Origin: Dehalococcoidia bacterium
Lineage (GTDB): Bacteria > Chloroflexota > Dehalococcoidia > GIF9 > UBA5629
Length of the DNA stretch: 20,614 nucleotides
Direction of reading: 5' to 3'
Assembly: GCA_014384515.1 (NCBI GenBank)
Contig: JACNFS010000226.1
Location: forward strand, 1 to 20,614
Shown piece by piece: positions 3,377-18,321 of the stretch. The notes beneath the pieces are model-generated. The model saw only the letters and a list, made by a program, of their open reading frames with translations. It had not been told where the DNA came from and ran no database searches. Both the position numbers and the translations under genes were made by a program. Within the stretch, counting starts at the first letter, position 1. Every line of letters starts with the position of its first letter.

Positions 3377-4324
3377 CTACGCCTTCTTCCTTGACTTGAT
3401 GACTAAGACCGAGGCAACTATAGCAGCAACTACGACCCCACCAATTATCAAATAGAGTGTTGGGAATTTCGTTGGTCTTTCCGGAGCCTCGGAAACTTGT
3501 ATAGGGACCCCCACTGTTTTCTTATCCAGTACGTTTCCTGCAGTATCGGCTAAAGCCACTTCGGCATAATAGTAACCTGGCTCGATGCCACTAGTGTCCC
3601 ACTCGGCAGTGACAGAGGCGTCTCCGACAAGGCTCCTAAGCGACCTGAGAGGCAGACCAGCTTCAGTCTCATCAGAGCCATATTGCTTTATCACTGTGTT
3701 AACGATGACATCTTGTGTCTCGCCAGAGTTGTGCAGCCACATGTCTATAGGAACTTTATCCCCTGGCTCATAGGTTTCCTTGGCGATGGTTAAGCCGGTT
3801 ATCGACACGCTGGAGATGACATATTCGATGTCAAAGCAGTAATTCTTGTAGAATTTCACATCGGTCGTTTCAGGATCATAGTAGAAGGGGTACATCACAA
3901 TGATCAGGGTAGTACTGCCATCAGGGTTCTCCCATTGGCTCCAGTCATATTCCTCTTCTGGGTACCATCCTTCCTTCATTTCTATTGGCAGCTCAGGTGA
4001 TGGGTCTAATATCACAACCGGCAATCTGAGCCCGGTCGCAGTTTCCAATCCAGACCTTTCCTCTAGGATAACATCCTGAACCCGGTATCCTTTGGGATAA
4101 TCAATAGATCTAATATAATAAGGCACTCTTGGTCTACCCTCTTCTGCTAATAGCACCTCGCCTCCGGGTATCTCTACATAGTCCAGACCACCTACACTAG
4201 TTACCGTGTAACCAGGGATAGTTAGCTCAATGGACGAGGGTAACTCAGCACCATAAGAAAGACTGGTAGGCCAAGATGCCAGGAGAAGAATAATAACAGC
4301 CAGAATCCATCTCTTTCTCATCAC
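3377..4324 (-). CDS. Membrane-anchored gingipain-propeptide-like protein
   Basis: This 315-residue protein has an N-terminal signal peptide (MRKRWILAVIILLLASW...), an extracellular part and a C-terminal transmembrane helix (about 288-310, LIIGGVVVAAIVASVLVI) followed by SRKKA, so it is exported and anchored. Residues 30-165 (VEIPGGEVLLAEEGRPRVPY, YPKGYRV, the YPFYYDPET segment, then FDIEYV) resemble the propeptide domain found at the N-terminus of C25 peptidases (Propeptide_C25). Residues 170-275 look like an Ig/CARDB-type beta sandwich. It starts six bases after the stop of the C25 protease gene. GTG at 4324 and ATG at 4321 are adjacent in-frame starts, both served by GGGGAG at the end of the protease gene, so the two are probably co-translated. 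A separate chaperone or inhibitor role in trans is my inference. Confidence 0.75.
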   Translation of the reverse strand: MMRKRWILAVIILLLASWPTSLSYGAELPSSIELTIPGYTVTSVGGLDYVEIPGGEVLLAEEGRPRVPYYIRSIDYPKGYRVQDVILEERSGLETATGLRLPVVILDPSPELPIEMKEGWYPEEEYDWSQWENPDGSTTLIIVMYPFYYDPETTDVKFYKNYCFDIEYVISSVSITGLTIAKETYEPGDKVPIDMWLHNSGETQDVIVNTVIKQYGSDETEAGLPLRSLRSLVGDASVTAEWDTSGIEPGYYYAEVALADTAGNVLDKKTVGVPIQVSEAPERPTKFPTLYLIIGGVVVAAIVASVLVIKSRKKA

Positions 4325-4330
4325 TACTCA

Positions 4331-7300
4331 TCACTCCCCAAATTTCGGGTCTCCGTATAGGTTATATTCATAGACAAAGTAGCGCCAGTTACCCCCTTCA
4401 CGTATCTTTCTCCTTTGCAAGTCAAAGAAGGCATCCCCAATCCTGGAACTCCTTGACCAACCTCTCCAGAATCCTTCTCTTGTAACTTCTTCGTTGTGTC
4501 CCGTAGAAGAGACTTCGGTTGAACCGAGATATATCGCGGCCCCATTTCTCAAGAAGGCCCTTGCAATGCTGGTATGGCCATGAACCGGATCGATAACTGT
4601 ATAATCCCCCGTCAAGCAAGAGAAGGCTAGGACAATAGGACGACTACCACCAAAACTGATAGGCTCAATAGGGCACTCACTTGTTGTCCAATCATCAAGC
4701 ACACAAGCCCAACCACCTGGTCCACCGTGACCCAAAAAGACAATGACGTCTTTGTTAGGTGTCTGCGCCTTAACCTCCTGAGCTATACGATGGAGGACTT
4801 CGTCACCAGTGCGACAGTAAGTATAAGTCCATCCGTAGTCACCGCCTCTTCCTCTTCTGTCAGCCTGTACCCTTTCTGCTATCCGCAAGGCCTGCTGAAC
4901 CTCCTCGTCACCGGTATACGCTGGTGCCCACTTATGTTGCCTGCCTTCACTGTCGGTAAATTCTTGATACTCTATTGCCCACTGTGCCCAGTATACATCT
5001 TCACTATCCAACAGCCAGAGTGCCAATTGCATAGTACTGAAGGTGTTCATTGGAGGATCCGGGTCAGATGCAGCACCTCCATCATCTGGACCTTTAATCC
5101 TCAATGCCTCGGCTAACATACTGTGTTCTATGGTATAATATTCTGTGTGAACAATTGGCACAGGCACAGTGACCCCTTTCCCAGCAAGTGTAACTCTACC
5201 ACCCTCTGCATTCTTTATAGCTGCTTCCCATGTGTCCTCATATCCGGTGACTAAAAGTGCATCAGAGCCATCGTAATCTGCTCTGCCTTTATGAACATCA
5301 AGACTTGCTTTAATTGGTTTTATGAGTTCCTCTGCAGTATTGCCAATGATTCTACCAACCTTCAGCTCGGGTCCGTCATCATCAGCAATATCAGCATAGG
5401 GATAATCGGAGATATCGATAAAGCCGCCGGTATGCTCCTGAAAGAAACCTGGGTAGGACAGACGCCAAGCGGGGACTATCTCAGACTCTCCCACGATGAG
5501 CAAGTAGTCAAAGGGGGCAAGTTTTTCATACCAAGCACCTCCGGGACTGATTCGGCTTTTGAGAGAATAATTCGTTACCCCAGAAGAAGGGAGATAACCC
5601 AGCACACCATTCTTTTCCTTTGCCAGTTCCGCCATAGTCGCTAGTAATTCATTTACATCATCATCATCGTAATGAGTAAACAGGGCTGAGGGGTTAGTGA
5701 CTATAAGGTAATCAGCGCCTAAAAATGCAAGCCTTGGCCCTTCCGATGTGCTCCACCGCGTCCGTGGCTCTTCGGAGTAAGTCCGACCTCCAGCTTGATA
5801 AGAGATCGAAAAGCGATCACCTATAGTGGGAATATGTGGTTCTTCACGGGGGTCAAAAAGTATGGGCACTACATAATACCTTACCTTAAGAGTATTGCCT
5901 GCTCTCAAGGACCTGTACTGATATCCCAGTTGGCTTGACTTTGCTACTGTAGAATATGAAACATTGCAAGGGACCGGGGGCCCAAAAACATCTCTTCCAA
6001 TACTAATAAAAACCTTATTAATACACTGGAAGCCCCAATTGAGATCAGCTATTGTGATGTCGCTGATATCAACATCACCAATGTTCTCTATCGTCAATGT
6101 AACTTCAAAATAGTTATCGGATCTTGTTACATCACGGAAGACTCTAATGGACGGTCTAGGTATAGCCTCAACACGAGGACGAGCAATAATGACTGACATA
6201 CTGGCATGACCCCAATTTTCGTGTTTATCCTGAGCGCTTACCTCAATGATATGGGTACTATCCCACTCAACCCCTGCATCCCAGACACAGGTCTCATACA
6301 CCGGAGGCTCAGGATACCCTGTTACCACCCATATCGGCTCCAGTCCAGGTCCTACATCCATATAATATCCTTTGGTATACGGTTTTTCACATATAACCTC
6401 CCCATCAACCTCAACCGTTATATTCTTAATCCCATACTCCAAATCATGTGTAACCTCTACCCCAATCGGCACCTCACCATAAACCTCAGCCCTTGATTCG
6501 GGAGGGATAACCTCAGGATTGATAATCCGCACATGCACCGGAGAAAGGTCTACGGGGAAGACATTTTGGACATTGCCCGCAAGGGTAGCGACAATACTGT
6601 TGCCGGCAACATCATAAGCTTCAGCACTAAAGTTGTGAGAACCTTCATCAAGAACTCCTGTGTCGCATTCCCACTCAAAGGGAGCAGAAAAATCAGTGAA
6701 CACTGGCTCGCCATCACAGAAGAAGACAACTCTATCCACACCGATGTTATCCTCCGTGTCAGCCGAGATGGGTACTGTCCCGGAAAGCGTATCAGGGATT
6801 AGGAGAGAAAGCGATGGCTTCTCTACATCAGGAGGAGACAAAGTCTCAAAGCTGAGGTCACGGCTTATCGCTCTGTTTCCGCTGGAATCCCTGGATTCAA
6901 CCATAAAGTGGTAGGTTGTTGTCGGCTCAAGCTTGGTCAGGGTGAGACAGTGCTCCTTGACCAGATTAGAATCTTCCAAGACCCTGCCGTACTTTCCGGA
7001 GCGATAATCATAGCCGGTCCGACTATCGCTGGCCTCATCTGTTCCCCAACAGATAACCACTGAGGTCTGGGTTACCTCGGAGACAGTTGGGCCAGAGATA
7101 ATGTGCGGTGGAGTAATATCGACGATGCACTCACAAACTTTTTCTAGGCAATTATTTTGCTCGTTGGACTCCTTCAGCTGATTATAGCCATCAGCGCAAA
7201 CGCTAACCTTTATGGTCTTACACTCAGGCCATTTGTATTCTTTAAACCAAGATTCGTAGCTTGCTCCTGACTTAAGGTCAACGCTGACCAAATCATGCGA

Positions 7301-8785
7301 TACTTCTTCGCCGTCTACATATAGAGTGGTGGCATGACCTGCCTTGGCTTGTTCCTCGCCGATATTCTTTACCACATAGCCTATCTGGCTATTCTCCCGG
7401 TCGCACTTGATTACCTCAATTATGAGGTCTGGTAGTTTTTCCTCCATATACCAGGTTTGTTCGAGACAATTGTTTCCCTCATTCTTTTCGTTAACGTCTT
7501 GGTCCCAATCCGCGCAAACCTTTATGATATGTTGAGGCGGCGTCATCTCCCAGTAGTAATCGAAAGGATTATCAATCCACTGCCCCGGCAGCATTTCATG
7601 GATGTTGACACAGTCTTTCGCCACCAGTTCACCATCAATGAAGAGAGCATTACAGAATGGTGTAGTGCCACCAAGGGGATTTACTACGCTGCCTTGTCCA
7701 ATGTTCTCTATTTTGTAGCGTATCATGTTACCCTCTTGCCGTATATCAACAACTACGAGGTCAGGCAGTGCTATTTCGCAGGGTTCGACTTTCTGTTCCC
7801 TTATATTATTTTGTTCATTAGATTCCGTTATATTGTTTGTGGGGTCAACAAGCACCCTCACGATAACTGGCTCTGCAATATCCCAGGCCACAAGATAGGT
7901 AGAGCTGCCTCCAGGCTTGTCTATGCTCCCACCAACGGTAGAAGTGGGGTGTTTGAGGTCAAAAGCGCCCCTTTTTACGCCGTCAAAATAAGCCTCGGCT
8001 ACTGCTGTCCATCCGCCGGGCAGGGCTCCTGAACCGATGTTCTTTATGGTCACCGAGAGCTTATTGCCCGGGCCACACTCAATCCTGTCGACTATAAGGT
8101 CAGGAGGAGCAGGAGGAGCAGGAGGAGCAGGAGGAGCCGCGGTCTCTATCCTTGCCTCAGCCCAAGCTGCCCAGTCCTGGCCCGAACTCTGTCCGGCGTT
8201 AACATAGAGTATGAAATGCCCTGTTCTGCCAGCTAATGGACTCAGGCTCTTGGTTATTGAATCAAGCTTGCCGTCATAAGTCGCCCCATAGCTGAGAATT
8301 GTTTGTCTATTTTGCCCCTCCTCAAATTGAACCTCAAAGGTAGCGCCATCGGTCCCGGTAGCCCCCTTGAGAAACCCCACGGCAACTCTAAGCTCCGCGC
8401 CGACAGGGATTGTCAATTGGGGGTATCTGCCCATTATCCAACCATTGCTTGTCCACTGAGGATGTGTTTCCAGGACTCTTGTCCTTGTGCTGTTATCCTC
8501 AAGCTGTGCATTGTCCCTGTAGCAGGCGAAGCCCCTGCTATCACTATCACTCCCCGGGAATGGCAAGCTGCCAGCTCCACTTCCCCAGGATGCATAGGGT
8601 GCCTGGGCTATAAAGTCGTAGAAGATAGTGTCGGCGGCAGAGGCTGTTTTAGTGTCTATGCCGAAAGGAAGGCTTGTACTTAAGAGGGATATCAGAACGA
8701 TGGTGATTATGGGGACCGCCAAAATTCTTCGCGGGTTCAGGTGGTTACGCTTTGTATGAACCGTATGAATGTCTGGCAACTTCAT
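4331..8785 (-). CDS. Secreted multidomain C25 (gingipain-like) cysteine protease with CARDB and Ig-like domains
   Basis: I choose ATG at 8785 (1484 residues) over the longer GTG frame from 8851 because a promoter lies inside that extension. Approximate domain order: signal peptide 1-51; an unrecognised domain 55-214; an APP-rich linker; three CARDB adhesion domains (each starting PDL(I/V)(V/I)) at 228-340, 341-451 and 452-556; an Fn3/phosphatase-N-like domain 557-656; two Ig-like domains to about 868; a further beta domain to about 1020; and a peptidase C25 domain 1020-1484. The catalytic dyad is visible as H1353 in FLGHGGPGG and C1390 in LAFSCLTGD, and the domain ends with NLYGDPKFG as in gingipains. 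CARDB regions are Cys-rich, suggesting disulfides. I see no propeptide or C-terminal anchor or sorting domain. The downstream gene encodes a propeptide-like membrane protein. Gingipain-type specificity for Arg or Lys cannot be assigned. Confidence 0.88.
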   Translation of the reverse strand: MKLPDIHTVHTKRNHLNPRRILAVPIITIVLISLLSTSLPFGIDTKTASAADTIFYDFIAQAPYASWGSGAGSLPFPGSDSDSRGFACYRDNAQLEDNSTRTRVLETHPQWTSNGWIMGRYPQLTIPVGAELRVAVGFLKGATGTDGATFEVQFEEGQNRQTILSYGATYDGKLDSITKSLSPLAGRTGHFILYVNAGQSSGQDWAAWAEARIETAAPPAPPAPPAPPDLIVDRIECGPGNKLSVTIKNIGSGALPGGWTAVAEAYFDGVKRGAFDLKHPTSTVGGSIDKPGGSSTYLVAWDIAEPVIVRVLVDPTNNITESNEQNNIREQKVEPCEIALPDLVVVDIRQEGNMIRYKIENIGQGSVVNPLGGTTPFCNALFIDGELVAKDCVNIHEMLPGQWIDNPFDYYWEMTPPQHIIKVCADWDQDVNEKNEGNNCLEQTWYMEEKLPDLIIEVIKCDRENSQIGYVVKNIGEEQAKAGHATTLYVDGEEVSHDLVSVDLKSGASYESWFKEYKWPECKTIKVSVCADGYNQLKESNEQNNCLEKVCECIVDITPPHIISGPTVSEVTQTSVVICWGTDEASDSRTGYDYRSGKYGRVLEDSNLVKEHCLTLTKLEPTTTYHFMVESRDSSGNRAISRDLSFETLSPPDVEKPSLSLLIPDTLSGTVPISADTEDNIGVDRVVFFCDGEPVFTDFSAPFEWECDTGVLDEGSHNFSAEAYDVAGNSIVATLAGNVQNVFPVDLSPVHVRIINPEVIPPESRAEVYGEVPIGVEVTHDLEYGIKNITVEVDGEVICEKPYTKGYYMDVGPGLEPIWVVTGYPEPPVYETCVWDAGVEWDSTHIIEVSAQDKHENWGHASMSVIIARPRVEAIPRPSIRVFRDVTRSDNYFEVTLTIENIGDVDISDITIADLNWGFQCINKVFISIGRDVFGPPVPCNVSYSTVAKSSQLGYQYRSLRAGNTLKVRYYVVPILFDPREEPHIPTIGDRFSISYQAGGRTYSEEPRTRWSTSEGPRLAFLGADYLIVTNPSALFTHYDDDDVNELLATMAELAKEKNGVLGYLPSSGVTNYSLKSRISPGGAWYEKLAPFDYLLIVGESEIVPAWRLSYPGFFQEHTGGFIDISDYPYADIADDDGPELKVGRIIGNTAEELIKPIKASLDVHKGRADYDGSDALLVTGYEDTWEAAIKNAEGGRVTLAGKGVTVPVPIVHTEYYTIEHSMLAEALRIKGPDDGGAASDPDPPMNTFSTMQLALWLLDSEDVYWAQWAIEYQEFTDSEGRQHKWAPAYTGDEEVQQALRIAERVQADRRGRGGDYGWTYTYCRTGDEVLHRIAQEVKAQTPNKDVIVFLGHGGPGGWACVLDDWTTSECPIEPISFGGSRPIVLAFSCLTGDYTVIDPVHGHTSIARAFLRNGAAIYLGSTEVSSTGHNEEVTREGFWRGWSRSSRIGDAFFDLQRRKIREGGNWRYFVYEYNLYGDPKFGE
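8102..8137 (-). repeat. 9-bp tandem repeat encoding an APP linker
   Basis: Four copies of GGAGGAGCA on the plus strand encode an Ala-Pro-Pro repeat on the minus strand. It links the unrecognised N-terminal domain of the C25 protease to its first CARDB domain. A stiff spacer is the likely role, and copy number may vary between strains. Confidence 0.85.
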
Positions 8786-8802: not shown

Positions 8803-8832
8803 ATAATAGCACGGTAATTTCTGATTTGTCAA
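8803..8832 (-). promoter_or_regulatory. Sigma-70-like promoter of the C25 protease unit
   Basis: On the minus strand, TTGACA (8827-8832) and TATTAT (8803-8808) are separated by 18 bp. The expected transcript start falls about 10 bases before the ATG at 8785, with a G-rich GGGGGCGGCGGG in between. A consensus -35 inside the possible GTG-started extension argues for the 8785 start. Confidence 0.7.
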
Positions 8833-8986
8833 TATACACTATGCGTGGCACGGCATCTGCAATGTTGAGGTCGGATGTTCAAATCGCCTGGGTGTCAGCC
8901 CATCTCATCCCAACCAGTTAATGTCGTTTACACGAAACATCTGTATGGCCCCGCGCGAAGAACAAGCAATACGTGCAAACTAGGAG

Positions 8987-9059
8987 TGGGCGATAGTGGA
9001 CTTGAACCACTGACCCCCTGCGTGTAAAGCAGGTGCTCTAACCACTGAGCTAATCGCCC
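8987..9059 (-). tRNA. tRNA-Val (anticodon TAC)
   Basis: A full cloverleaf reads on the minus strand: acceptor GGGCGAT pairs with ATCGCCC, the D arm has TAGCTCAGTGGTTAGAGC, the anticodon stem CCTGC/GCAGG encloses loop TTTACAC, and the T loop is TTCAAGT. The anticodon TAC reads valine GTA/GTG codons. The 3' CCA is not encoded. It is the last of four tRNA genes in the cluster. Confidence 0.97.
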
Positions 9060-9063
9060 GTGG

Positions 9064-9139
9064 TGGCACGCCTGGTGGGATTTGAACCCACGGCCTCAGC
9101 CTCCGCAGGGCTGCGCTCTATCCGCTGAGCTACAGGCGC
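9064..9139 (-). tRNA. tRNA-Arg (anticodon GCG)
   Basis: Acceptor GCGCCTG pairs with CAGGCGT (one G-U at position 1-72). The anticodon stem CAGCC/GGCTG holds loop CTGCGGA, giving anticodon GCG for arginine CGC. The T loop is TTCAAAT and a CCA end is encoded at 9064-9066. Most bacteria read CGU/CGC/CGA with an inosine-modified ACG tRNA, so GCG is unusual. Only four bases separate it from the next tRNA. Confidence 0.95.
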
Positions 9140-9140
9140 A

Positions 9141-9226
9141 TGGTGCCGAAGGTGGGATTTGAACCCACACATCCTTACGGATACTACGTCCTGAACGTAG
9201 CGCGTCTGCCATTCCGCCACTTCGGC
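9141..9226 (-). tRNA. tRNA-Leu (anticodon CAG)
   Basis: This is a class II tRNA with a long variable arm (TATCCGTAAGGATG). Acceptor GCCGAAG pairs with CTTCGGC, and the anticodon stem CTACG/CGTAG holds loop TTCAGGA, giving CAG for leucine CTG. The CCA end is encoded at 9141-9143. One base separates it from the Arg gene and one from the Val-CAC gene. Confidence 0.97.
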
Positions 9227-9227
9227 G

Positions 9228-9300
9228 TGGGCAGTACTGGACTTGAACCAGTGACCTCTTGCGTGTGAAGCAAGCGCTCTAACCACTGAGCTAACCGCCC
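9228..9300 (-). tRNA. tRNA-Val (anticodon CAC)
   Basis: Acceptor GGGCGGT pairs with ACTGCCC (one G-U). The anticodon stem CTTGC/GCAAG encloses loop TTCACAC, giving CAC for valine GTG. No CCA is encoded. It closely resembles the TAC valine tRNA in the same cluster, suggesting they arose by duplication. It is the first gene transcribed from the promoter at 9308-9337. Confidence 0.97.
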
Positions 9301-11354: not shown

Positions 11355-12086
11355 ATGCAGCAAACAGGTAATTGTCCTAACTGCGGTTCACCAATTGGTC
11401 TTGGTCAGCGATTCTGCGGAGGTTGTGGTGGTCAGTTGCCCGCCGGTTGCCCCTATTGTGGGGCGGCTGTTACCCCTGGATTTAGGTTTTGCTCGAACTG
11501 TGGTGGAGCAGTGAGTGGGGGGATGCCACAGCAGCCAGGGGGCGTGCCACAGCAACCAGGGGGCATGCCACAGCAGCCGGGATGGGGTCAACAGCAGCCG
11601 GCGTGGGGCCAGCAAGAACAGCCGGCGTGGGGTCAGGCCGTAGCAGGGAGGCGGTCGTCTATGACACCGCTTCTTATACTGTTGCTGGTTGTCCTCTTGG
11701 CTGGACTTGGGGGCCTCGTCTACTACCAATTTGGCGATCAGCTGACGGGCATGTTTTCGTCTTCCACTGGTACAGATACCACGGCACCTCAAATCACGAA
11801 TGTCGTGGCTTCAGCAGATAACACAAGCGCTACTATTACTTGGTCAACTGACGAGTTAGCTAGCACCCAGGTTGAGTATGGCCCGACTGCCGCTCTAGGT
11901 ACATTGACGATATTGGCGGATGACCCAGCTTCTGGTACCTCTGCGGGAGTCCTTAGTCATTCCCTAGAGTTGACTGGCCTTACCTCTGGAACTACCTATC
12001 ACTATAAGGTTATGTCAAAGGATGTGGCTGGGAACGAAGCAGTATCGGAAGACGAAACTTTCACCGCGGGATCTTCCTCGGAATAA
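11355..12086 (+). CDS. Zinc-ribbon, Pro/Gln-linker, single-TM, Fn3-like protein
   Basis: The 243-residue protein starts at ATG 11355 with AGGAGAG upstream. Residues 1-50 hold two zinc-ribbon halves with eight Cys at 7/10, 21/24, 32/35 and 46/49 (CPNC, CGGC, CPYC, CSNC), as in double zinc ribbons. Residues 57-94 are a repetitive PQQPGG/QPAWGQ linker. Residues 104-125 form one membrane helix with RR before it, which predicts a cytoplasmic N-terminus. Residues 143-240 are an extracellular Fn3/phosphatase-N-like domain (TAPQITNV, TITWSTDE, STQVEYG, TTYHYKVMSKD) closely resembling the Fn3-like domain of the C25 protease. The protein thus places a metal-binding head inside and a beta-sandwich outside the membrane. 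Its role is unknown; sensing or scaffolding are possible. It appears to be a single-gene unit. Confidence 0.85.
   Translation: MQQTGNCPNCGSPIGLGQRFCGGCGGQLPAGCPYCGAAVTPGFRFCSNCGGAVSGGMPQQPGGVPQQPGGMPQQPGWGQQQPAWGQQEQPAWGQAVAGRRSSMTPLLILLLVVLLAGLGGLVYYQFGDQLTGMFSSSTGTDTTAPQITNVVASADNTSATITWSTDELASTQVEYGPTAALGTLTILADDPASGTSAGVLSHSLELTGLTSGTTYHYKVMSKDVAGNEAVSEDETFTAGSSSE
11523..11636 (+). repeat. Repeats encoding a Pro/Gln/Gly-rich linker
   Basis: Three near-identical 21-base units encode (M/V)PQQPGG or PGW, followed by shorter copies of CAGCCGGCGTGGGG(C/T)CAG encoding QPAWGQ. They connect the zinc ribbons to the membrane helix and could change length by slippage. Confidence 0.8.
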
Positions 12087-13007: not shown

Positions 13008-13373
13008 ATGACTAGGTTTAGTACCCGCATTTATGCCTATCTCATGCTATTGAGAGATGAATATCCTTCGACTGACGAGGAGCAGGCAGTACACATTGAT
13101 ATCCCGTACCCGAATGCCAAAGAGGAGCTCAATCGCTGGCTGCCGCTGGTAAAGTGGATAATGGCGATTCCCCACTATGTTGTTCTCTGCTTCCTTGGCA
13201 TCGCTGCCTGTGTGCTTGTAATAATTGCCTGGTTTGCCATCTTGTTTACCGGCCGCTACCCCCAGTCCCTATTTGACTTCGTAGTTGGTGTATTTCGGTG
13301 GTCTTTGAGAGTGGAGGTATACGCTTTAATGTTAACCACCGACCGTTATCCACCTTCCAGACTCAGCGACTAA
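13008..13373 (+). CDS. DUF4389 membrane protein, C-terminal part
   Basis: This continues the DUF4389 gene in the same frame after the TAA at 12996-12998. Before its first ATG (13008) the codons AAT CTA GCT read N-L-A, and the family consensus there is close to N-L-(A)-x-TRFSTR, so homology begins right after the stop. Residues include TRFSTRIYAYLMLLRDEYPSTDEEQ, the second DUF4389 repeat PLVKWIMAIPHYVVL, a membrane segment, and FTGRYPQSLFDFVVGVFRWSLRV. No ribosome site precedes 13008, so translation would need readthrough or reinitiation. Without that, this is the lost half of a pseudogene. Confidence 0.75.
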   Translation: MTRFSTRIYAYLMLLRDEYPSTDEEQAVHIDIPYPNAKEELNRWLPLVKWIMAIPHYVVLCFLGIAACVLVIIAWFAILFTGRYPQSLFDFVVGVFRWSLRVEVYALMLTTDRYPPSRLSD

Positions 13374-17079: not shown

Positions 17080-18321
17080 CTAATCCTGAACTATCTTCGC
17101 CTCTACCCACACCAGCCAGTCTTGTTCCCACGAGTCCTTAGCCTCAACTCTCAGAACGAAGTACACCTTTTCCCCTGCCAAGTCACTCAAATCAATCTCA
17201 TAGACATCCAGTGTTTCATCGTAATAGACGTCCAGCTTCTCGAAGAAAACGAGGCTCTCGTCGACACCTATGTAGCCGAGGGCAACTGCTACCCCATCGG
17301 TCGCTATGGCTCCTTTCTTGAAGCCTACCGTGGCAGTGAATTTTGCCTTCTCCGGTACGACGATCTCGCGGGTCAGAGTCACGTGCGCCTCGGCGTAGAA
17401 GTCACCGTACTTGCCCTGTATCCAGCCGTCGGCAACCTGCTCAGGGTATGTGCTGAGGACATCGAGGTAGACCTCGCCGTCTTCCAGTATAACCTTACCC
17501 ACAAAAGCAGCCCCTTTCTTGTTGGTGGGAGCCGCTACCCATTCAAGTTCACCAGAGCTGTTTTTCCAGGTCGCTTTGGCTGCCTTGTCCACAAAATCAT
17601 ACGTGAATTTTGGGCCCCAGATTTGGTCGCTGCAGTTATTGGCTTCATCGCTTTCCTCAACGGCATCATCGCCGTCGGCGCAGACCTCAACGTGATAGGT
17701 CCGAGTCGCTTCAGCTGCACTAATGACTGCCTCAGGTCGAGTGGCTCCCCCTACCAAGGGGAAATCCCACGAGTAATTGGAGAACTTCGTGGTCATTTCC
17801 TGCCCAGCAGCCAGAGGCTCTATATAGTCGTTGGCCGTCTCAAGATCATCCACATACAGGTATGACAGACTCGATTTGGCGTCGGCATCGCCTTGATTCT
17901 TTATCTTGTAGTTAACGGTGTGCCCGCCCGAAAGCCAGAAGTCCGTAATTACCAGGTCTGGCTTGCCGGTTACTGCTGATGTAACTGTGACTGTAACGGA
18001 GCTAGTGGTGCTGCCACCTTCATTGGTGGCCGTTAGAGTAAACATCGTGGTGGCGTATGGCGACACTTGTTCAGTGCCGCTTGGGTCAACGTCACCGACC
18101 ACGGGCTCAATAGTCACTGTTGTGGCACCGGAGACATCCCAGCTTAGGGTTGCTAATTGCCCGGGGTTGATGGTCTCAGGGCTGGCGGTAAACGAGTTGA
18201 TCACTGCTTCGGCCGATTCCTCAGGTGCACCCTTATCACCGGTAGCGCAACCCATTGTTGAGCCAACCAATACAACCAGCGATACTGCAATCAAGATCCA
18301 GTACCATTTGCGTTTCTTCAT
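17080..18321 (-). CDS. CARDB lipoprotein sharing a domain with the C25 protease
   Basis: The 413-residue protein starts at ATG 18321 with AGGAGG six bases upstream. It has a signal peptide with lipobox STMGC (Cys 25). Residues 37-113 are an Ig-like domain (FTASPETINPGQLATLSWDV, TFTLTATNEGG-like). Residues 120-232 form a CARDB domain (GKPDLVITDFWL, NYKIKNQGDADA, VEESDEANNC). Residues 240-411 match the N-terminal domain of the C25 protease over their whole length: YDF, LED, GWIQGKY, VGFKKGA-x2-TDG, LSDLAG and QDWLVWVEAKI. In the protease this domain precedes CARDB; here it follows. The function of this shared domain is unknown; a carbohydrate- or protein-binding beta-sandwich is my guess. A sigma-70-like promoter lies upstream. 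Confidence 0.88.
   Translation of the reverse strand: MKKRKWYWILIAVSLVVLVGSTMGCATGDKGAPEESAEAVINSFTASPETINPGQLATLSWDVSGATTVTIEPVVGDVDPSGTEQVSPYATTMFTLTATNEGGSTTSSVTVTVTSAVTGKPDLVITDFWLSGGHTVNYKIKNQGDADAKSSLSYLYVDDLETANDYIEPLAAGQEMTTKFSNYSWDFPLVGGATRPEAVISAAEATRTYHVEVCADGDDAVEESDEANNCSDQIWGPKFTYDFVDKAAKATWKNSSGELEWVAAPTNKKGAAFVGKVILEDGEVYLDVLSTYPEQVADGWIQGKYGDFYAEAHVTLTREIVVPEKAKFTATVGFKKGAIATDGVAVALGYIGVDESLVFFEKLDVYYDETLDVYEIDLSDLAGEKVYFVLRVEAKDSWEQDWLVWVEAKIVQD

What the first reader, a model, noticed from the sequence alone, without database searches (positions are those of the whole stretch)
3377..8785. Split gingipain-like system: C25 protease with a separate membrane-anchored propeptide-like partner
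The 1484-residue protein has a full C25 catalytic domain (H1353, C1390) but no recognisable N-terminal propeptide and no C-terminal anchor or sorting domain. The gene six bases downstream encodes a signal peptide, a Propeptide_C25-like region and a C-terminal membrane helix. In known gingipains the propeptide is part of the same chain and inhibits or folds the enzyme. Here that role may be supplied in trans from the membrane, which would both activate and tether the protease. The homology call for the partner is by eye.
Basis: partly seen in the sequence, partly recalled or inferred. Interest (0 to 1): 0.72.

Follow-up and report, generated by a model that had tools for sequence, protein, structure and literature searches.

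The report
Gingipain-type protease with detached propeptide
A Dehalococcoidia-like bacterium encodes a secreted gingipain-family protease whose propeptide domain is not part of the enzyme but is made by the next gene as a separate membrane-anchored protein; related microbes have this either as two genes or as one fused chain with the propeptide behind the protease instead of in front.

Summary
Bases 4331-8785 (-) encode a secreted C25 protease with both catalytic residues and no detectable propeptide in its chain. Six bases on, 3377-4324 (-) encodes a signal peptide, a Propeptide_C25-like domain, an Ig-like domain and a C-terminal membrane helix. Pfam misses the propeptide homology in the single sequence, but profile comparison finds it (HHalign 96%, E 4e-9; shuffles at most 0.3%), and the canonical set used hits the solved gingipain prodomains. 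The larger result lies outside the window: of 178 related C25 proteins examined, 92 carry this domain in the same chain, each time after the protease domain, and 86 show none; in none was it found before the protease. Fused and split states change 7-8 times on the protease tree. In four genomes read directly the partner starts 2-6 bases after the protease; one relative lacks it. So this is a C25 lineage with a C-terminal propeptide module that is repeatedly detached as an anchored subunit. A complex and tethering are strongly inferred; inhibition is not shown, and the segment matching the gingipain inhibitory loop is the least conserved stretch of the domain. Structure prediction could not be completed. 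New variant of a known kind.

The parts
4331..8785 (-). secreted C25-family cysteine protease, 1484 aa from ATG 8785 (an upstream in-frame GTG at 8851 gives 1506 aa)
   Evidence: ORF; PF01364 E 1.7e-16
8636..8785 (-). probable signal peptide of the protease, ending ...TKTASA
   Evidence: seen in the sequence, cleavage site by eye; 74 of 86 split proteases have a hydrophobic 12-mer in the first 80 residues
8147..8620 (-). N-terminal domain without a Pfam family, shared with the 17080-18321 protein
   Evidence: BLASTP 32% identity over 172 columns; no Pfam match there
7121..8134 (-). CARDB domains
   Evidence: PF07705 E 7.9e-32, 3 stretches
6623..7096 (-). fibronectin-like and Big_7 domains
   Evidence: fn3 and PF16656 below their cut-offs, PF17957 E 9.6e-13
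4334..5740 (-). C25 catalytic region
   Evidence: His codon 4727-4729, Cys codon 4616-4618
8803..8832 (-). promoter-like site just upstream of ATG 8785
4325..4330 (-). intergenic 6 bases (TGAGTA): a second in-frame TGA directly after the protease stop; partner start in the same frame
3377..4324 (-). partner protein, 315 aa (GTG 4324) or 314 aa (ATG 4321)
   Evidence: 153 proteins at E <= 0.01, 120 listed
4247..4324 (-). signal peptide of the partner
   Evidence: of 120 listed partner proteins (window's own included) 110 have at least 18 aa before the domain, and 110 of these 110 have a hydrophobic 12-mer there
3809..4246 (-). Propeptide_C25-like domain (residues 27-172)
   Evidence: HHalign E 4.4e-9; alignment; canonical profile hits 108 of 120 partners at E <= 0.01
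3494..3811 (-). Ig-like domain (residues 172-277)
   Evidence: follows the propeptide-type domain in split and fused forms; matches to PF13199 in 49 of 69 relatives (best E 1.1e-6) and to MG2 and CARDB; dextranase 3vmn at E 9e-4
3398..3457 (-). C-terminal membrane helix, followed by KSRKKA
   Evidence: hydropathy

Best explanation
The two genes make one surface protease system. The protease is exported through its own signal peptide; the partner is exported beside it, stays in the membrane by its C-terminal helix, and holds a propeptide-type domain facing outward. That domain docks on the C25 catalytic domain in trans, does the job that the C-terminal propeptide module does in the fused relatives (helping the catalytic domain to fold and holding it, probably covering the active site until released), and tethers the otherwise anchor-less enzyme to the cell. 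Shown: domain homology, absence of a detectable propeptide in the protease, adjacency in four genomes, fused equivalents, repeated change between the two states, and anchors on the partner but not on the split protease. Inferred: binding, tethering, folding help. Open: whether it inhibits.
For: Homology: HHalign 96%, E 4.4e-9 over 142 of 153 columns against 18 canonical PF08126 domains of the same phylum; 20 column shuffles gave at most 0.3%, the reversed profile 0.2%, the partner's own Ig domain 0.8%. A profile of 14 of those 18 hits the Kgp and RgpB prodomains in the PDB at 1.5e-27 and 1.8e-20. The profile of the 18, which holds no partner or fused sequence, matches 108 of 120 partners (best E 4.8e-9) and 49 of 92 fused relatives (best 2.8e-8) but 0 of 86 proteases without the module, at E <= 0.01 in a set of 298. 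Fused forms: 92 of 178 related C25 proteins carry the domain after C25, 86 carry none, 0 carry it before C25. Adjacency: window, L025/L009, L026, L027, gaps 6, 2, 2, 4 bases counted to the first start codon. In the genome searches all 10 matches that span the propeptide-type domain lie beside or within a C25 gene. Interchange: 8 changes of state on a 126-row quick tree, 7 forced by starred branches, shuffled mean 40; 7 changes when two rows that may be truncated are left out. Co-inheritance: distance correlation 0.80 over 21 pairs, 0 of 2000 permutations as high. Anchors: of 120 partners 80 end in a membrane helix and 17 look dockerin-like (23 neither); of 86 split proteases 0 do.
Against: No structure or complex model could be made. 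The segment aligned with the gingipain inhibitory loop (residues 103-118) is the least conserved stretch of the domain, and it holds a basic residue in only 85 of 115 partners and 48 of 91 fused forms, so a substrate-like plug is not evident. L011 has a C25 protein with an anchored Ig-type neighbour without a propeptide domain. Adjacency was read directly in only 4 genomes, and L025-L027 were found with the partner as query, so they show that the partner goes with a C25 gene, not that each such C25 gene has a partner. Of the 21 pairs in the co-inheritance test 17 were picked by equal contig length (one of them also read directly) and one by consecutive locus tags; shared descent alone also gives correlation. 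In the class sample 7 of 21 C25 places show no propeptide of either kind.
Confidence: 0.72

Rival explanations
1. Scaffold and anchor only: the propeptide-type domain in this lineage has lost the zymogen role and is a permanent docking and anchoring module; the enzyme is active when bound. (This shares binding and tethering with the best explanation and differs in the role of the domain, so the two confidences overlap.)
For: Inhibitory-loop segment most variable; in fused forms the module lies between the protease and the C-terminus, which is a membrane helix in 16 of 92, dockerin-like in 4 and neither in 72, many of these with a YLP-type tail; L011 keeps an anchored Ig neighbour without the propeptide domain.
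Against: The framework of the domain, not only the anchor, is strongly conserved (for example P37, Y39, P53, G55, P68, W128, Y149 at 95% or more), and gingipain propeptides inhibit in trans (PMC3677877, abstract and section 22).
Confidence: 0.3
2. The split is a sequencing, assembly or pseudogene break of one fused gene.
For: In the window the partner is in the protease's reading frame, after two TGA codons.
Against: Partners have their own signal peptide (110 of the 110 with enough sequence) and fused linkers have no such stretch (0 of 92); the three other loci have gaps of 2, 2 and 4 bases, none in frame; 82 of 86 proteases without the module end within 4 residues of the domain end.
Confidence: 0.02
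3. The partner is a substrate, or an immunity-like inhibitor that protects the cell from its own protease, rather than a subunit.
For: Protease-inhibitor gene pairs exist (SpeB-Spi, staphopain-staphostatin; PMC3462683 passages).
Against: Those inhibitors are thought to act in the cytoplasm (same passages); this partner has a signal peptide and an anchor. Fusion to the protease in 92 of 178 relatives fits a subunit better.
Confidence: 0.1

Closest known systems
Gingipains RgpB and Kgp (MEROPS C25) with their N-terminal propeptide (PF08126; PDB 4ief, 5mun)
   Same: C25 catalytic domain with the GHG...C dyad and a propeptide domain of the same family.
   Different: Propeptide not N-terminal but C-terminal (fused relatives) or on a separate anchored protein; no conserved basic residue in the loop segment; CARDB and Ig-type domains before the protease.
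Canonical C25 proteins of the same class (L079-L084, L086)
   Same: The same two domain families.
   Different: Propeptide before C25, in 7 of 21 C25 places of the class sample. One genome, G207, has both a canonical and a C-terminal form.
SpeB-Spi and staphopain-staphostatin pairs
   Same: Cysteine protease gene directly coupled to a gene for a binding protein (PMC3462683, passages); that Spi resembles the SpeB propeptide is recalled, not checked.
   Different: Other protease families (C10, C47); inhibitors thought to be cytoplasmic (same passages).
Legumain (C13, same clan CD) with a C-terminal prodomain
   Same: C-terminal position of the prodomain (PMC4357240, passages).
   Different: Single chain; that its prodomain is unrelated is recalled, not tested.
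A stand-alone subtilisin-propeptide-like inhibitor of the malaria protease SUB1 (PMC6993865, search listing only)
   Same: A propeptide-like protein made apart from its protease.
   Different: A serine protease of another clan; its gene order was not looked at.

Membership tests
Peptidase C25 | Pfam PF01364 above the curated cut-off | tested here: met
   60.9 bits against 23
Peptidase C25 | catalytic His in GHG and a Cys downstream, aligned with gingipain | tested here: met
   H1375 and C1412 of 1506, 85 of 85 rows; aligned to the mature gingipain chains 4ief_B and 1cvr_A, whole-sequence E 2e-4 but best single stretch only 0.08
Gingipain-type zymogen | N-terminal Propeptide_C25 in the protease chain | tested here: not met
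   at most 0.6% for any of ten segments; 0 of 178 relatives
Propeptide_C25 (PF08126) | Pfam match above the curated cut-off for the single protein | tested here: not met
   none for the window protein; 23 of 69 relatives match, best E 0.004; the one partner score seen, 16.3 bits for L027, is below the cut-off of 22
Propeptide_C25 (PF08126) | profile-level homology along the whole domain | tested here: met
   with shuffled, reversed and Ig controls; link to PDB prodomains
Propeptide_C25 (PF08126) | inhibitory loop with a substrate-like P1 residue | tested here: inconclusive
   loop segment aligned but variable; no structure
Propeptide_C25 (PF08126) | fold of the gingipain prodomain | not tested
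   structure prediction was interrupted, then switched off
Protease-inhibitor gene pair (SpeB-Spi like) | adjacent genes in several genomes | tested here: met
   window, L025, L026, L027; exception L011
Protease-inhibitor gene pair (SpeB-Spi like) | partner inhibits the protease | not testable with these tools
   needs biochemistry

The most novel reading that the evidence does not exclude
A lineage of C25 proteases, found in bacteria and archaea, in which the propeptide lies behind the protease and has repeatedly been released as a separate, surface-anchored regulator: the enzyme would be held and kept silent on the cell by a reusable propeptide subunit and set free by dissociation rather than by cutting, so one conserved module couples zymogen control to surface display.
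Probability: 0.3. Interest if true: 0.75.

Novelty: new variant of a known kind. Interest (0 to 1): 0.6.

Why it matters
C25 genes were the most abundant exported peptidase class in an estuarine sediment metagenome, 41-45% of those with signal peptides (PMC6752024, passages), yet in the papers seen here the mechanism of the family rests on the gingipains of one oral species. If environmental members hold their propeptide at the other end or on another protein, ideas of how they are activated, anchored and assayed must change; the protease expressed alone may be inactive or unfolded, and the partner gene would be needed. The natural fused and split pairs also make a clean test of what a C25 propeptide does.

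Tried and rejected

Rejected: a broken single gene; stop-codon read-through as a rule (two in-frame TGA in the window, the three other pairs out of frame); a hidden propeptide inside the protease; a second C25 in the window's genome (G000:C217 is below the cut-off, and matches neither my C25 nor my propeptide profiles).

Weak or empty: matches to the partner in G004, G019, G319, G347, G021 and G207:C16 cover mainly its Ig, helix or PKD part and were not counted as propeptide-type; G004, G019 and G021 were searched again with the domain alone and gave nothing. The searches of the genomes of L010-L012 rang nowhere, even though L011 itself matches PF01364, so they show nothing; L010 and L012 match the protease only in its N-terminal part and were not studied. 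The contig-length test is indirect: 17 of 86 split against 1 of 91 fused proteases (one fused protein has no contig length) share the longest-contig length with a partner (an earlier try was mistyped and gave no result); only the 120 best of 153 partners and the 120 best of 284 proteases were listed. For the tree 182 rows had at least 280 covered model positions and 126 were kept after dropping rows over 68% alike; no canonical C25 passed, so there is no outgroup and the direction of change is unknown. Four of the 86 proteins without the module end 11-33 residues after C25 and may be cut by contig ends; two of them are in the tree. Without these two the count falls from 8 to 7 changes.

Paper searches for an earlier description (open-licence PMC only) showed none in their listings; this is no proof that none is in print.
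Full report
What is there. The window is contig 108 of a 1.38 Mb, 77% complete genome. On the minus strand lie two genes. The first encodes a protease of 1484 aa (ATG 8785; 1506 aa from a GTG at 8851): signal peptide, an N-terminal domain without a Pfam family, CARDB, fibronectin-like and Big_7 domains, then a C25 catalytic domain that reaches the end of the chain. The second starts 6 bases later and encodes 315 aa: signal peptide, a 146-residue domain, an Ig-like domain and a C-terminal membrane helix with a basic tail.

Is the 146-residue domain a Propeptide_C25? Pfam does not say so for the single protein; among 69 relatives 23 give a PF08126 match, best E 0.004. I therefore took canonical PF08126 domains from genomes of the same phylum (18 of the 24 loci; the other six were left out as short or weak) and compared profiles. 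Partner domains and fused forms (75 sequences) against the canonical set: 96% probability, E 4.4e-9, colinear over 142 columns. Controls: 20 column shuffles at most 0.3%, reversed profile 0.2%, the neighbouring Ig-like domain 0.8%. A profile of 14 of the 18 finds two gingipain prodomain structures, Kgp 5mun at 1.5e-27 and RgpB 4ief at 1.8e-20. The canonical profile of 18 finds 108 of 120 partners (57 at E <= 0.001, best 4.8e-9) and 49 of 92 fused relatives, and 0 of 86 proteases without the module.

Does the protease have its own propeptide? Ten segments covering residues 40-1506, as profiles of the window protease and 24 other split proteases (rows with little sequence in a segment left out), were compared with both propeptide profiles; the best probability is 0.6%. 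None was found.

Relatives. A search with the catalytic region gave 284 proteins (120 listed); a search with a fused relative gave 60 (58 new). Of these 178, 92 carry the propeptide-type domain after C25 in the same chain, with a linker of 15-88 residues (median 21), and 86 carry none and stop 0-33 residues after C25, 82 of them within 4. None was found to carry it before C25. The second search was made with a fused protein, so 92 to 86 is no estimate of natural shares. Names given by the sources include Chloroflexota, Bacillota, WOR-3 and several archaea; in one, a Methanosarcinales archaeon, the protease and the partner have the tags DRN70_02240 and DRN70_02245.

Gene order. Read directly: window, gap 6; L025 (the same contig as L009), gap 2; L026, gap 2; L027, gap 4. 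Fused: L028, L029, L032, and L033, which starts inside the protease. An exception is L011: a C25 protein followed by an anchored Ig-type protein without the domain. In the order, 4 of 84 genomes have the domain, two split and two fused; in the family 1 of 30, the window's own; in an even draw of the phylum only the window's own genome of 226. The distribution is patchy. In a class sample 18 of 386 genomes have C25, at 21 places: 7 with the propeptide before C25, 4 with it after C25 (G207:C19, G218, G117, G173; the last two are remote matches), 3 with the downstream partner (G000, G295, G405), and 7 with none seen, of which 3 frames are cut by contig ends (G184, G272, G158) and one is below the cut-off. 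As indirect evidence for metagenome contigs, 17 of 86 split proteases but 1 of 91 fused ones share the exact longest-contig length with a partner.

Split and fused are interchangeable states. On a quick tree of 126 C25 domains (73 fused, 53 split) the state changes 8 times, at least 7 by starred branches, against 40 for shuffled labels; leaving out two rows that may be truncated gives 7. Split partners have their own signal peptide (110 of the 110 with enough sequence), fused linkers have no such stretch (0 of 92); so neither state looks like an artefact of the other. For 21 protease-partner pairs the two distance matrices correlate at 0.80, 0 of 2000 permutations as high, and 15 of 21 have the same nearest neighbour in both. 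Of these pairs 17 were picked by equal contig length (one, P0171 with P0004, is also L025), one by locus tags and 3 were read as loci; common descent contributes to the correlation.

Anchors. By a simple hydropathy and motif rule, 80 of 120 partners end in a membrane helix, 17 look dockerin-like and 23 neither; 0 of 86 split proteases do; fused forms end in a helix (16 of 92), look dockerin-like (4) or neither (72), many of the last in a short ...YLPLVLR-type tail. Where an anchor can be recognised it lies on the propeptide side of the system.

Mechanism. A domain that occurs either fused to an enzyme or as its next-door gene, with several switches between the two, most likely binds that enzyme. 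Being of the gingipain-propeptide family, it most likely binds at or near the catalytic domain as those do: in RgpB a loop of the prodomain puts an Arg into the S1 pocket (PMC4357240, passages), and separate propeptides inhibit the mature enzymes with Ki 12 nM (RgpB) and about 2 uM (Kgp) (PMC3677877, abstract and section 22). Here the anchored partner would fold, hold and tether a protease that has no anchor of its own. Against a plain copy of the gingipain mechanism: the segment that aligns with the inhibitory loop is the most variable stretch, with a basic residue in 85 of 115 partners and 48 of 91 fused forms (which residues form that loop was judged by aligning by eye); and in the split form nothing needs to be cut to part the two proteins. 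I therefore hold complex formation and tethering as likely, folding help as plausible, inhibition as open.

Novelty. C25, Propeptide_C25 and in-trans inhibition by gingipain propeptides are known. A C25 lineage with the propeptide behind the protease, repeatedly split off as an anchored subunit, was not described in what my eight searches listed (open-licence PMC only; listings seen, and passages or named sections of five papers: PMC3677877, PMC13366090, PMC3462683, PMC6752024, PMC4357240). It is a new variant of a known kind.

Noticed in passing
17080-18321 (-): A 413-aa protein shares the unnamed N-terminal domain (32% over 172 columns) and CARDB domains with the protease, so the domain is a repeated extracellular module in this genome.
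   Followed up: partly
8986-9300 (-): Four tRNA genes (Val, Arg, Leu, Val) lie directly upstream of the protease; with the patchy distribution of the pair a tRNA-side insertion is conceivable.
   Followed up: no
L011 3693-4517: A C25 relative is followed by an anchored protein with Ig-like domains but no propeptide domain: a possible loss of the propeptide part.
   Followed up: partly
P0204, P0207, P0226, P0235 and other fused relatives; L079; L092: Many of these extracellular proteins end in a short ...YLPLVLR-like tail, which looks like an unnamed C-terminal sorting or anchoring signal.
   Followed up: no
P0016, P0047, P0110, P0118, P0258, P0273: Some partners and fused forms carry dockerin repeats (PF00404), which suggests cohesin-type docking of the protease.
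   Followed up: no
4325-4333: The protease ends in two in-frame TGA codons and the partner starts in the same frame; in the three other pairs the frame is not kept.
   Followed up: yes
L081 and L029 (genome G207): One genome holds both a canonical N-terminal-propeptide C25 protein and a C-terminal-propeptide one.
   Followed up: partly
11355-12086 (+) and 13008-13373 (+): A double-zinc-ribbon protein with a fibronectin-like C-terminal part and probable membrane helix, and a DUF4389 protein.
   Followed up: no
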